Part shown: in pieces, positions 1,933-10,185 of the stretch
Layout: the number at the start of each line of letters is the position of its first letter
Position numbering within the stretch: position 1 is the first letter of the stretch
Assembly: GCA_019638455.1 (NCBI GenBank)
Contig: JAHBTU010000001.1
Span: forward strand, 1,503,501 to 1,567,500
Source: Saprospiraceae bacterium
GTDB lineage: Bacteria > Bacteroidota > Bacteroidia > Chitinophagales > Saprospiraceae
DNA: 64,000 bases
Direction of reading: 5' to 3'
Made by a program: the position numbers and the translations under genes
Notes under the pieces: generated by a model
What the model was told of the DNA's origin: nothing
The model's input: the letters and a program-made list of their open reading frames with translations, nothing else
The model's database searches: none

Positions 1933-4017
1933 TCACTGCGGAGACGAAGCCACGCGGAAGCCGAGGGAGTAGCCGCGGTTGAGGCCGCGAAGCGAGACGC
2001 GGCAATTCACCGCCGAGTTGCCCCAGGAGCCGCCACGGTACACGCGGTTCGAGCCTGTCGCTGGCCCTGTCGGGTTGGTCTGCGCCGTGGTGGGATATTC
2101 GCCGTACCAGTCGCTGCACCACTCCCACACGTTGCCGCTCATGTCGTAAAGGCCCAGTTCGTTGGCTTTTTTGCCGCCCACCGGGCGGGTTTTTTTGCCG
2201 GAGTTGGACTCGTACCACGCCACTTCCTCCAAGTTGTTGCTGCCGGCGTATTTGAAGCCCTTCGACTTTGTTCCGCCCCGTGCGGCGTATTCCCACTCGG
2301 CCTCGGTGGGCAGGCGGTATTTTCGCCCGGTTTTTTGGTTTAGTTTTTTTAAAAACTCCTGCACGTCGTTCCAACTGACCCGCTCCACGGGGCACTGGTC
2401 GCAGCCCTTGTTCCACAATTCCGGCGGGTCGCTGCCCATCACCTCCCGCCACTGTTTTTGGGTGACCTCGTGCTGGGCGATGAAATAACCGGAGAGGGTC
2501 ACTTTTCGGGTGTTTTTTTCGTCGCCGTCGCACTCGCCGCCCTGCTCGGCGGTGCAGCCCATGGTGAAGGCGCCGCCGTCCACGAACACCATGTCCGGTT
2601 CGTAGTCGAACTTTTTGACCCATGCTTTGGGGTCTTGAGCGGGGGTTGTGCCGCCGGCGGTGCTTTGCTGTCCTGTTATCTTGAATTGGGCCATGACGGC
2701 CAGTTTGAAGGAGCCGTCGTCCATGGGTATGGGGTAGGCCCACAGGCGCTGCGGGCTGCGATAGACGGTGAGGGTTCGGTTGGCATCGTAGCGGGTCACG
2801 TCGAGGTTTTCCACTTCGGTGATTTGAAGGATGCGGTCCACCTTGCCGTAGCCCTGTTCGAGTTGTTTGCAGGTGTTGAGCGCCTCGAGGGCGAGGTGAT
2901 GGGCGGGCGAGCCTTCGATGAAGGTACGGGTTTCCTTGATGATGATTTCGCGCTCTTTGGTTTGCGTCCAGCGGGCGGTCAGGTACTGGATTTGTTTGCG
3001 CAGGTTTTGCAGGGCTGCGTTGACGGAGCCGTCTATGTTCTGGGCATCGTAGGACACGCCGAGTTCGCGGCAGATGGCGGCGATTTTCGAGGAGCGGGTG
3101 TTGAGGCGGAGGCGGGCGTCCTCGATTTCGCGGTCGAGGCGGCGGATTTCCTCGGTGCCGCGCTGGAGGATGTCGTCCTGCCGGCTGTCGGCGGCGATGT
3201 TGTCGCGCTGGATGTCGGCGAGGTAGGGCAGCACGTCGCGCTCGATGCGGGCGATGTGTTCGTCGCTGACGCCTTTGGCGCGCAGGCGGCTGCGGAAGTC
3301 GGAGTCGCGGGCGAGGTTGAACACGGCGGCGTTGGTAGGCCTGGCCGCGCCGTCGGGCTTTTGCTTGAGGGGCGTGGCGCCGATTTTGGCCACGTAGAGG
3401 AAGTAGTTTTTCTGGAAGTTGGCTTGGTTGAAAAACTCTTTTTCGGCCTTGGCCTCGCCGCCGAGGAAGGCCTGCACCACGTCGCGCACGGGGGCGAAGT
3501 CCTGCACTTGAGTGGAGCGTTTGATGTACACGCCCACCAAGTCTTCCACGGCCACGGGGGCAATGGCGGCGTTGGCCTTGCCGATGAGCGCGCTTTTGTT
3601 CTCGTAGGGGTCAATGTTTTCGAGCAGCACCGCGAAGATGCCTGTGTGCTTCACATAGCTGAGGTTTTGCTCCAGTTCGACGCGGGATTTTTTCCGGCTC
3701 TCTTCGAGGTCGCGAATTTGCTTTTCGAGGCCGCCCACGTCCTTGTAGGTCAGCACCTGCTGGTACTTGATGGAGAGGTTGGACATTTGGGACACCAAGC
3801 CGTCGAGTTCGCGGTCGGTGGCGGCGTTGCATTGGTCTATCTCGCGTCGCGCGGCGAGGAAGTCGGCTTCGGCATATTTGGGTTTGTGTTTCTCGAAGAG
3901 GCTTTCCAGGGCAGAAGCCGTCGCCGGGTAGGCGGCGCTGACGGGGCTGGCGGGCAGGCAGGTATTTTGAGCGCCGAGGGCATGAGGCAGTAGGAGCAGA
4001 AGGTAGAGGAGTCGCAT
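1933..4017 (-). CDS. DGR target protein 1: secreted, coiled-coil region plus FGE-sulfatase/C-type-lectin domain
   Basis: Protein of 694 aa. The start was chosen at 4017 because it gives a signal peptide (MRLLYLLLLLPHALGAQN); the frame stays open upstream but has no signal there. Residues ~20-330 are rich in Glu/Lys/Arg/Gln heptad-like stretches, likely coiled coil. Residues ~480-694 are an FGE-sulfatase (SUMF1-like) domain: VDGGAFTMGC, then LPTEAEWEYAARGG, MSGNVWEWCSDW, and finally RGGSW...LGFRVASSPQ. This C-type-lectin-like fold is the classic DGR display scaffold. The last ~40 codons are VR1 (1936-2056). It is paralogous over its whole length to the gene at 6062-8416. Its own promoter is plausible, with a TATCTTAG box in the leader. 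Likely role: exported or surface ligand-binding protein whose binding face is diversified. The ligand is unknown. Confidence 0.93.
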   Translation of the reverse strand: MRLLYLLLLLPHALGAQNTCLPASPVSAAYPATASALESLFEKHKPKYAEADFLAARREIDQCNAATDRELDGLVSQMSNLSIKYQQVLTYKDVGGLEKQIRDLEESRKKSRVELEQNLSYVKHTGIFAVLLENIDPYENKSALIGKANAAIAPVAVEDLVGVYIKRSTQVQDFAPVRDVVQAFLGGEAKAEKEFFNQANFQKNYFLYVAKIGATPLKQKPDGAARPTNAAVFNLARDSDFRSRLRAKGVSDEHIARIERDVLPYLADIQRDNIAADSRQDDILQRGTEEIRRLDREIEDARLRLNTRSSKIAAICRELGVSYDAQNIDGSVNAALQNLRKQIQYLTARWTQTKEREIIIKETRTFIEGSPAHHLALEALNTCKQLEQGYGKVDRILQITEVENLDVTRYDANRTLTVYRSPQRLWAYPIPMDDGSFKLAVMAQFKITGQQSTAGGTTPAQDPKAWVKKFDYEPDMVFVDGGAFTMGCTAEQGGECDGDEKNTRKVTLSGYFIAQHEVTQKQWREVMGSDPPELWNKGCDQCPVERVSWNDVQEFLKKLNQKTGRKYRLPTEAEWEYAARGGTKSKGFKYAGSNNLEEVAWYESNSGKKTRPVGGKKANELGLYDMSGNVWEWCSDWYGEYPTTAQTNPTGPATGSNRVYRGGSWGNSAVNCRVSLRGLNRGYSLGFRVASSPQ
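1936..2056 (-). repeat. DGR variable repeat VR1
   Basis: Aligns with the TR at 4378-4510. There are 15 substitutions, every one at a position where the TR coding strand has A, plus one 12-nt in-frame gap (TR codons missing from VR1). The 3' end of VR1 (coding strand) is identical to the TR through ...GCTTCGTCTCCGCAG, immediately before the TGA stop of target 1; this conserved end is the presumed initiation-of-mutagenic-homing region. Confidence 0.93.
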
Positions 4018-4060
4018 AATCAGATGTGATTTTGGTGGGGCTAAGATAGGGAGGATGTAT

Positions 4061-9532: not shown

Positions 9533-10185
9533 TTTTTAAGCAAGGTTAAAAGTTCCTTTACTTCAGGGTCGTCGGGGTTGATTTTCAAGGCTTTTTCGAG
9601 TGCTTCGTAGGCTTTTTCTATTTTTCCGCCCCGATAAAGGGCGTTGGCGGCTTTCAGGTTGAATTTGAGCAATTGTTGCAGCTCTGCTATTTTTTGCTGC
9701 GCCTTTCCCGCGTGTTGGCTACTTGAGTAATCACGCAAAAAAGCCTCGAGCGCGGGTATGTTGCCTGCCTCGACCGCCAAATTGTAAGCGAGGGAATCGG
9801 CTGGCGAGGATACCGACGGAAGTTTTTCAGGCGGAGCAGTCTCGGTGCCGATAAAATACCATGCAGCCAACGCGACCAACATGACGAGCGATGCCCACAA
9901 CAAAGGCTGGCGATAGGGTTGCCACCCGTTTTTGAGGAGTGGCGGGTTTTTAGGCAATTGTTCGAGGAGTTGGAGCAAAGCGTGGGCGATGTCGTTTCGG
10001 CGGCGGTCGAGTTCGGCAGGCGACTCCATGCCTCTTATTTGCTGGTTTATGAGCTCGGCGTGGCGCGAGGCAATCATCAAGGCATTTTGCTCCAGGTGCG
10101 TTTGCTTAGTCAGTTTCAGTAGGGCATGGAGGGCTTCGTCGAGGCGGCTGTCGGAGATGAGTTGTTTTATTTGCTCTTTTTTCAT
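9529..10185 (-). CDS. EAD11-like / transmembrane / TPR protein, first gene of the DGR operon
   Basis: Protein of 218 aa. Residues 1-75 (IKQLISDSRLDEALHALLKL, SRHAELINQQIRG, RRRNDIAHALLQLLEQL) match the pattern of effector-associated domain 11, a small helical adaptor found in Bacteroidota and cyanobacterial conflict and signalling proteins. Residues ~94-112 are a single transmembrane helix (LLWASLVMLVALAAWYFIG). The C-terminal half has TPR-like helices, ending with GGKIEKAYEALEKALKINPDDPEVKELL. The predicted topology puts the EAD in the cytoplasm and the TPR in the periplasm, a possible link between a cytoplasmic effector and the secreted targets. It overlaps the next gene by 4 bp. The EAD11 call is by recognition only. 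Confidence 0.7.
   Translation of the reverse strand: MKKEQIKQLISDSRLDEALHALLKLTKQTHLEQNALMIASRHAELINQQIRGMESPAELDRRRNDIAHALLQLLEQLPKNPPLLKNGWQPYRQPLLWASLVMLVALAAWYFIGTETAPPEKLPSVSSPADSLAYNLAVEAGNIPALEAFLRDYSSSQHAGKAQQKIAELQQLLKFNLKAANALYRGGKIEKAYEALEKALKINPDDPEVKELLTLLKK

What the first reader, a model, noticed from the sequence alone, without database searches (positions are those of the whole stretch)
1933..10185. Complete two-target diversity-generating retroelement with an HRDC accessory gene
Seen: RT with GNLTSQ and YMDD motifs, an AAC-rich TR just downstream, two FGE-fold target genes ending in VRs, and an HRDC protein overlapping the RT start. Known: these are the defining parts of DGRs, which diversify ligand-binding proteins. 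Inference: a chromosomal, probably surface-exposed, recognition system with two diversifiable proteins sharing one TR.
Basis: partly seen in the sequence, partly recalled or inferred. Interest (0 to 1): 0.93.

Follow-up and report, generated by a model that had tools for sequence, protein, structure and literature searches.

The report
RNA guide in a diversity-generating retroelement
Just after its RNA template, this bacterial gene-diversifying retroelement carries a stretch that is largely the reverse complement of the DNA following each gene region it rewrites, and the match has changed in step across relatives, so the RNA likely guides the mutated copy to its targets.

Summary
The diversity-generating retroelement (DGR) is real: an RT closest, among solved structures, to that of phage BPP-1; an HRDC gene overlapping it by 4 nt; one TR (30 adenines in 132 nt) directly after the RT stop; two FGE-fold targets. 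VR1 carries 12 substitutions at TR adenines and 1 elsewhere; VR2 20 and 1. As assembled, VR2 lacks one nucleotide and target 2 leaves its frame.

Among relatives 65 of 85 TR/VR pairs (54 of 65 loci) show it strongly, against 0 of 1,700 shuffles and 1 of 97 pairs from viral contigs, that one being the only viral locus with HRDC. Sequences differ between loci but pairing persists; the genome's three DGRs have mutually distinct pairs; 3 of 4 remote VRs keep it. A covarying helix closes TR. The strong cases lie in one RT clade.

Best reading, inferred: the spacer guides homing by pairing with the strand the cDNA anneals to, as an Okazaki-like RNA-cDNA chain. No experiment was run; the papers I could search do not report it.

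The parts
1902..1935 (-). VR1 3' flank = target site; its VR-distal 18 nt (1902-1919) are the exact reverse complement of the first 18 nt of the spacer
1936..2055 (-). VR1, 3' end of target 1
   Evidence: 12 substitutions at TR adenines, 1 elsewhere, 12 nt deleted
1933..4017 (-). target 1, FGE-sulfatase domain at its C-terminus; start codon chosen by eye
4334..4344 (-). P1 helix, 3' strand
   Evidence: covarying helix
4347..4378 (-). RNA spacer from the last base of TR to TGAA: proposed guide (first 18 nt 4361-4378)
4378..4509 (-). template repeat TR
4514..4524 (-). P1 helix, 5' strand, inside the last codons of the RT gene
4510..5517 (-). DGR reverse transcriptase
   Evidence: RVT_1; best solved match is the BPP-1 RT
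5514..6020 (-). HRDC accessory protein
   Evidence: Pfam HRDC; Foldseek RecQ HRDC
6128..6161 (-). VR2 3' flank = target site, identical to that of VR1 (distal 18 nt 6128-6145)
6162..6292 (-). VR2, one nucleotide shorter than TR (frame-shifted as assembled)
   Evidence: 20 substitutions at TR adenines, 1 elsewhere, 1 missing
6062..8416 (-). target 2 ORF as assembled, FGE-sulfatase domain
8474..9532 (-). 352-aa protein, no Pfam family; likely same transcription unit
9529..10185 (-). EAD11 domain plus TPR protein; a hydrophobic stretch between them by eye; possible signalling partner
   Evidence: EAD11 E 2e-14

Best explanation
In this HRDC-type DGR the ~32 nt of RNA directly after the template repeat are, with some mismatches, the reverse complement of the ~34 nt directly after each variable repeat, and this spacer likely acts as a guide that anneals the mutagenised copy to its target genes. 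Shown: adenine-specific TR-to-VR change; the complementarity and its covariation in relatives; a covarying helix (P1) that closes the TR; strong cases only in one RT clade of those sampled. Inferred: the RT copies TR from a primer at or near the conserved TGAAC at the spacer's end, as the BPP-1 RT is reported to prime from an adenine in its spacer, giving one chain, 5'-spacer RNA then cDNA-3'. This chain would be collinear and antiparallel to the VR sense strand followed by its flank, so RNA and cDNA could anneal side by side to the same single strand, like an Okazaki fragment. HRDC may stabilise that junction. TR itself lacks the site, which would spare it from homing. The two targets would then act as variable ligand-binding proteins; their ligand is unknown.
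For: 65 of 85 pairs (54 of 65 loci) score 12 or more; shuffles 0 of 1,700, direct orientation 2 of 85, non-cognate 419 of 7,094. Only the 3' flank x 3' flank combination does so; the five other combinations give 0, 0, 0, 0 and 1 of 84-85. 97 viral pairs: 1, in the only viral locus with HRDC, which has a 28-nt spacer and a near-perfect site abutting the VR end. Own site 2.4 mismatches, site of the most similar other arm 4.0, permuted 7.9. The three DGRs of this genome do not cross-match: 18, 20, 20 own against 5-11. Order-wide sample 21 of 27 (shuffles 0 of 1,350) with seven new arms; phylum sample 10 of 14 HRDC-only pairs. Spacer:flank duplex beats the two own folds in 77 of 78, and spacer self-match is lower than the cognate match in 72 of 78. 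58 of 66 sites are within 4 nt of the spacer's length. Remote VRs keep the site: 3 of 4. P1: 69 of 73 loci. BPP-1 background from print: spacer-primed RNA-cDNA hybrid, lagging-strand preference, Okazaki-like proposal (PMC12875486 passages).
Against: No experiment. 7 of 65 loci are weak (8-11) and 4 below 8; L116 has no match that I could see and L101 only a broken one. The VR-proximal half is weak: 17 of 78 reach 9 of 14 (shuffles 15 of 2,340; non-cognate 524 of 5,966). Spacer and site lengths do not correlate (r 0.005), and most sites are 2-3 nt longer than the spacer. Non-cognate full-spacer matches are common (1,634 of 5,966), as relatives share a consensus. In three of five multi-DGR genomes close paralogs cross-match, and in one (L079) the own score (11) is below the cross score (14). 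Own site is worse than the nearest relative's in 10 of 53. HRDC loci with Avd or more distant RTs lack it (L229, L221, L258), so HRDC alone does not predict it. One of four remote VRs lacks it. Spacer borders were defined after viewing flanks.
Confidence: 0.62

Rival explanations
1. Classical BPP-1-like target: each VR is followed by a DNA hairpin/cruciform that aids homing, the TR flank carries a similar hairpin, and the complementarity is only the look-alike of two hairpins.
For: Hairpins follow VRs in phage DGRs (PMC3240598, passages). The spacer in most loci can form a short hairpin.
Against: Spacer matched to itself scores 5.2 on average, to the VR flank 14.1; VR flanks matched to themselves 5.1. 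Direct orientation 2 of 85 and 0 of 78. L119's spacer has no evident hairpin yet pairs almost fully.
Confidence: 0.1
2. Target-primed synthesis: the sense strand is nicked at the VR-distal end of the site, its 3' end pairs with the spacer and primes copying of TR directly.
For: Pairing is strongest in the part next to TR (85-100% at positions 1-14, 55-70% at 15-18), as a primer would need, and starts at the last base of TR in most loci.
Against: It does not need the VR-proximal complementarity (17 of 78 at 9 of 14, shuffles 15 of 2,340) or equal lengths of site and spacer (58 of 66). The product would be a fold-back on the sense strand. BPP-1 primes from its own RNA (PMC12875486 passage).
Confidence: 0.12
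3. RNA-RNA pairing: the target mRNA's end pairs with the TR RNA, for processing, stability or control, not for homing.
For: The strand of the site is the mRNA-sense strand; the duplex would be stable (-43 kcal/mol by RNA parameters).
Against: Remote VRs keep the site, so pairing within one transcript cannot be the general reason; trans pairing is not excluded. The site sits beside the VR in every strong case, whatever the place of the target.
Confidence: 0.07
4. Imprint: past integrations copied the RNA part of the chimera into the target, and the complementarity is a trace without function.
For: It would explain the collinear match up to the VR end.
Against: Sites are mostly 2-3 nt longer than the spacer, and eight are 5-21 nt shorter, several lacking just the hairpin. 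VR1 and VR2 share the same deviations from the spacer.
Confidence: 0.04
5. Terminal inverted repeats: HRDC-RT-TR is a mobile cassette bounded by the two arms.
For: In C2, C5 and at VR2 the two arms bracket HRDC-RT-TR.
Against: VR1 here and remote VRs carry the site without bracketing the cassette; arms differ between paralogs.
Confidence: 0.01

Closest known systems
Bordetella phage BPP-1 DGR (mtd / avd / TR / brt)
   Same: DGR RT (E 5.5e-42 to the BPP-1 RT chain), TR/VR with adenine-specific change, target with variable C-terminus, spacer 3' of TR.
   Different: Avd instead of HRDC and TR before the RT; a hairpin follows VR (PMC3240598 passages); no spacer/VR-flank complementarity (score 6).
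Treponema denticola HRDC-type DGR (FGE targets)
   Same: HRDC accessory overlapping the RT, FGE-fold targets, remote targets (PMC4891356 passages).
   Different: The accessory gene is described between TR and RT; its flanks were not fetched, so spacer/site complementarity is untested there.
Thiohalocapsa PB-PSB1 and cyanobacterial DGRs in conflict systems
   Same: Several DGRs per genome, FGE/CLec targets, EAD-bearing neighbours (PMC10907252, PMC7159879 passages).
   Different: Cyanobacterial plasmid DGRs here have Avd and no complementarity (L230, L233). No MoxR, vWA or STAND gene among the window's six proteins.
Group II intron retrohoming
   Same: Works like (recalled): RNA bases choose the DNA target of a reverse transcriptase.
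   Different: Not filed as a member: the RT matches group II RTs far less well than the DGR RT, no intron was looked for, and the DGR product is a mutated replacement, not an insertion (recalled).

Membership tests
Diversity-generating retroelement | RT of the DGR clade | tested here: met
   Best solved match BPP-1 RT, E 5.5e-42 against 5e-14 for the next, a group II RT; on a tree of 107 RTs from DGR loci (no outgroup of other RTs).
Diversity-generating retroelement | TR/VR pair differing at TR adenines | tested here: met
   VR1 12 at A and 1 elsewhere; VR2 20 and 1.
Diversity-generating retroelement | Ligand-binding (CLec/FGE-fold) target with the VR at its C-terminus | tested here: met
   FGE-sulfatase E 2e-45 and 2e-49; VR2 is out of frame as assembled.
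Diversity-generating retroelement | Accessory gene (avd or HRDC) | tested here: met
   HRDC E 5e-18.
Diversity-generating retroelement | Mutagenic retrohoming activity | not testable with these tools
   No population reads or experiment.
BPP-1-type target site | Hairpin of 7-10 bp with 4-nt loop just after VR | tested here: inconclusive
   VR flanks of the clade matched to themselves score 5.1 on average and 27 of 88 reach 8; no dedicated test of the window's flank.
HRDC-clade DGR with spacer/site complementarity (group described here) | TR 3' flank reverse complementary to each VR 3' flank, score 12 or more | tested here: met
   18 of 18 at both VRs.
VMAP-ternary or STAND conflict system with DGR | MoxR or STAND NTPase, vWA or VMAP protein beside the DGR target | tested here: not met
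   None among the six proteins scanned against Pfam; EAD11 and TPR only. Genes further away were not scanned.

The most novel reading that the evidence does not exclude
Retrohoming in this HRDC clade of DGRs is RNA-guided: a covarying 18-33-nt guide carried by the RNA part of an RNA-cDNA chimera addresses targeted hypermutation to any gene followed by the matching site. It lets one genome run several hypermutation systems in parallel, reach remote targets and spare the template.
Probability: 0.6. Interest if true: 0.92.

Novelty: new variant of a known kind. Interest (0 to 1): 0.86.

Why it matters
How the mutagenised cDNA enters its target is described as incompletely understood even for BPP-1 (PMC12875486, passages). 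A guide that pairs with the strand the cDNA anneals to makes this testable by compensatory mutation. It would explain target choice, remote targets, template sparing and coexistence of several DGRs in one genome, and would suggest a role for the HRDC accessory protein. It also offers a simple criterion for assigning remote VRs to their TR.

Tried and rejected
GC skew of the window, to ask which strand is the lagging-strand template: inconclusive. Opposite-strand VRs inside the 65 loci with a TR, as a test of transcript pairing: none found. Rfam on 1800-10200: two chance-level matches far below their gathering scores. HRDC accessory fold: the C-terminal part matched RecQ, WRN and BLM HRDC; the N-terminal ~60 residues had modest confidence, and no match to it stood out. 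Synteny of the target N-terminal parts, the 352-aa protein and EAD11-TPR in L036-L118 by tblastn: no hit at 1e-6. The 352-aa protein is rare: 3 of 248 family genomes, own included. PADLOC and NCBIfam gave generic RT and RecQ-like matches, the NCBIfam ones below their cut-offs.

The first complementarity run gave 57 of 88 because TR ends were over-extended in some loci; the end rule was tightened and the test rerun (65 of 85). A first check of P1 without G-U pairs was weak (26 of 74 at 8 or more) and was redone with G-U pairs and an 11-position window. The first gapped count of VR1 used wrong borders and was redone.

What was dropped: 16 of 83 loci of the first set gave no TR/VR pair (67 with one) and 2 more lacked enough flank (65 used). 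In one search, 8 of 86 pairs were left out because the spacer could not be delimited. The expressions that delimit the spacer were written after looking at flanks, so searches are conditional on them; searches do not use them for scoring. In one search loci without a TR/VR pair were left out, viral rows were taken every third plus L119, and 17 newly fetched loci were chosen by hand. The pair finder itself demands adenine bias, so adenine counts over relatives (1,098 against 54) are partly by construction. Validation loci overlap the discovery set: many arms repeat those of L039-L118, and I count L246, L247, L249, L250, L252, L254 and L255 as new; the 14 HRDC-only pairs are close kin of the discovery set's Chlorobiota.
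Full report
WHAT IS THERE. On the minus strand of the window, read in that strand's direction: an EAD11-TPR protein (9529-10185), an unknown 352-aa protein (8474-9532), target 2 (6062-8416), an HRDC protein (5514-6020), a reverse transcriptase (4510-5517), the template repeat TR (4378-4509) and target 1 (1933-4017). Both targets hold an FGE-sulfatase domain (E 2e-45 and 2e-49). The RT's closest solved relative is chain 8ub7 (E 5.5e-42; the next, a group II RT, 5e-14), which matches BPP-1 Brt over its full length (E 4.5e-230). VR1 differs from TR by 12 substitutions at adenines, 1 at another base and 12 deleted nucleotides. VR2 differs by 20 at adenines, 1 at another base and one missing nucleotide that throws target 2 out of frame. 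The last may be a homing slip or an assembly error. The genome holds two further DGRs with 63% identical RTs, here called C2 and C5.

THE COMPLEMENTARITY. The 18 nt starting at the last base of TR are the exact reverse complement of 18 nt shortly downstream of both VR1 and VR2. C2 (14 nt exact, longer with a mismatch) and C5 (17 nt exact) show the same with different sequences. I therefore fetched 80 loci with related RTs from the genome collection (best 80 of 156) and 80 from the viral collection (best 80 of 442), and found TR/VR pairs by a scan that lets TR adenines vary. With strict repeat ends, 65 of 85 pairs (65 loci, including C1, C2, C5) score 12 or more. Controls: shuffled flanks 0 of 1,700, direct orientation 2 of 85, non-cognate flanks 419 of 7,094; in a second run of shuffles 1 of 850. 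By locus: 54 of 65 strong, 7 at 8-11, 4 below. One of the four (L074) was a truncated TR call that scored 14, and two (L093, L107) appear by eye to pair on both sides of a strong hairpin. Five other flank combinations are at background (0, 0, 0, 0 and 1 of 84-85).

CONTROLS OUTSIDE THE CLADE. Among 97 viral pairs (74 loci) one scores 12 or more. It is L119, the only viral locus of 80 with HRDC; HRDC was found in 80 of 83 bacterial loci. BPP-1, plasmid DGRs (two of them cyanobacterial, with TR also after the RT) and other loci without HRDC give 0 of 10 pairs. An HRDC-plus-Avd plasmid DGR (L229) and two further HRDC loci (L221, L258) also lack it. So neither HRDC alone nor TR position alone predicts it. 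On a tree of 107 DGR RTs it lies within one clade of 73 (100/99 support): 62 strong, 7 weak, 4 none; of the 34 outside, none strong and one weak. Record titles place members in Bacteroidota, Chlorobiota, Calditrichota, Planctomycetota, Hydrogenedentota and others; most are metagenome bins.

COVARIATION. For 53 distinct arm/site combinations (36 distinct arms; 62 of the 65 strong pairs could be used), positions 1-14 are Watson-Crick in 85-100% and positions 15-18 in 55-70%; 15 of 18 positions use three or four pair types. Mean mismatches are 2.4 to the own site, 4.0 to the site of the most similar other arm (own better in 32, equal in 11, worse in 10 of 53) and 7.9 after permutation. The three DGRs of this genome score 18, 20 and 20 with their own flanks and 5-11 crosswise. 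A second multi-DGR genome is equally distinct; three more contain close paralogs that cross-match at 14-18, and in one the own score (11) is below the cross score (14). In an order-wide sample 21 of 27 pairs reach 12 (shuffles 0 of 1,350), with seven arms not seen before; in a phylum-wide sample, 10 of 14 HRDC-only pairs.

THE WHOLE SPACER. The match is not limited to 18 nt. From the end of TR to a conserved TGAAC the RNA is 30-36 nt in 66 of 68 pairs, and its reverse complement aligns with the VR flank from the VR end to the end of the site. Of 78 delimitable pairs, 69 exceed 99.9% of shuffles; 0 of 78 do so in direct orientation; 1,634 of 5,966 non-cognate pairs do, since the family shares a consensus. 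The VR-proximal half is weaker: 17 of 78 reach 9 of 14, against 15 of 2,340 shuffles and 524 of 5,966 non-cognate pairs. Of 66 pairs with a spacer of at most 40 nt, 58 have site and spacer lengths within 4 nt; the other 8 sites are 5-21 nt shorter, and several of them lack just the part opposite a GC-rich hairpin. Lengths do not correlate (r 0.005 over 68); they hardly vary. Spacer:flank duplexes are more stable than the two separate folds in 77 of 78 pairs (RNA parameters stand in for RNA-DNA).

TR RNA STRUCTURE. An 11-position helix, P1, joins the sequence before TR (in the window, the end of the RT gene) to the bases after TGAACAG and so closes the TR. 69 of 73 loci pair at 9 or more positions (G-U as half), against 593 of 4,964 non-cognate and 21 of 1,460 shuffles, with all four Watson-Crick types at several positions. 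The spacer's first and last five bases change together in 64 of 74 loci (GCTCA/TGAAC 52, GCTTA/TAAAC 6, GCTCG/CGAAC 4, GCACA/TGTAC 2) and not in 10, leaving a constant C-A mismatch in the former; the expression used to find the spacer end limits what could be seen here. No Rfam family matches.

REMOTE TARGETS. In two other genomes, VRs on other contigs, with no RT in the stretch held (about 1.5 kb each side), keep the site (L268, L276, L279); one further candidate (L282) does not. This speaks against terminal repeats of a mobile cassette and against pairing within one transcript as the general reason.

MECHANISM. Reported for BPP-1 (PMC12875486, passages): an adenine in the spacer primes cDNA, giving an RNA-cDNA hybrid; [quoted passage not shown] an Okazaki-like intermediate was proposed by Naorem et al. 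(as cited there). Inference here: because the spacer is complementary to the same strand as the cDNA, and in collinear order, the hybrid could anneal as one chain, with the spacer choosing the target. HRDC domains bind nucleic acid in RecQ helicases (recalled; the fold match is), so HRDC may hold this junction. The lack of the site after TR would spare TR. Primer position, chimera and HRDC role are untested.

BIOLOGICAL ROLE. The targets resemble DGR-diversified sensors of conflict systems (PMC10907252, PMC7159879; passages). The EAD11-TPR gene upstream, and an LRR-Roc-COR protein with a weak EAD11 match (below its cut-off) beside C2, suggest signalling partners. No MoxR, vWA or STAND protein was found among the window's six proteins, so I do not file it as a ternary or STAND system.

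PRIOR ART. Nine paper searches were run. Passages found by keyword were read in PMC10053308, PMC7159879, PMC4891356, PMC10907252, PMC12875486, PMC3240598, PMC3521204, PMC8144416, PMC6642488, PMC8867640 and PMC4372165; no paper was read whole. None of these passages mentions complementarity between the TR and VR flanks. Most subscription papers on DGR mechanism are not in the library, so novelty is likely but not secured.

Noticed in passing
window 6162-6292: VR2 is one nucleotide shorter than TR, so target 2 as assembled loses its frame inside the VR and runs on to 6062; a homing slip or an assembly error.
   Followed up: partly
window 9529-10185 and L036:5890-8193: EAD11 adaptor domains lie beside two of this genome's three DGRs: an EAD11-TPR protein here, and an LRR-Roc-COR protein with a weak C-terminal EAD11 match at the second.
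   Followed up: partly
L037 (G000:C5:510728-511326): Pieces of another reverse transcriptase on the opposite strand, in two frames, directly beside the third DGR.
   Followed up: no
L229 (Prosthecochloris aestuarii plasmid pPAES01): A DGR with both HRDC and Avd genes and two FGE targets, without the spacer/site complementarity; possibly an intermediate type.
   Followed up: partly
L268, L276, L279: Remote VRs on other contigs of two other genomes that keep the site of the genome's DGR.
   Followed up: partly
L119 (IMGVR_UViG_3300028797_003184): The only viral-collection locus of 80 with HRDC; its 28-nt spacer has no evident hairpin and matches the VR flank almost completely.
   Followed up: partly
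window 8474-9532: 352-aa protein without a Pfam family, found in 3 of 248 family genomes (own included).
   Followed up: partly
window 1-8000: GC 0.61 here, with most of the DGR, against 0.43-0.56 in the rest of the window.
   Followed up: no
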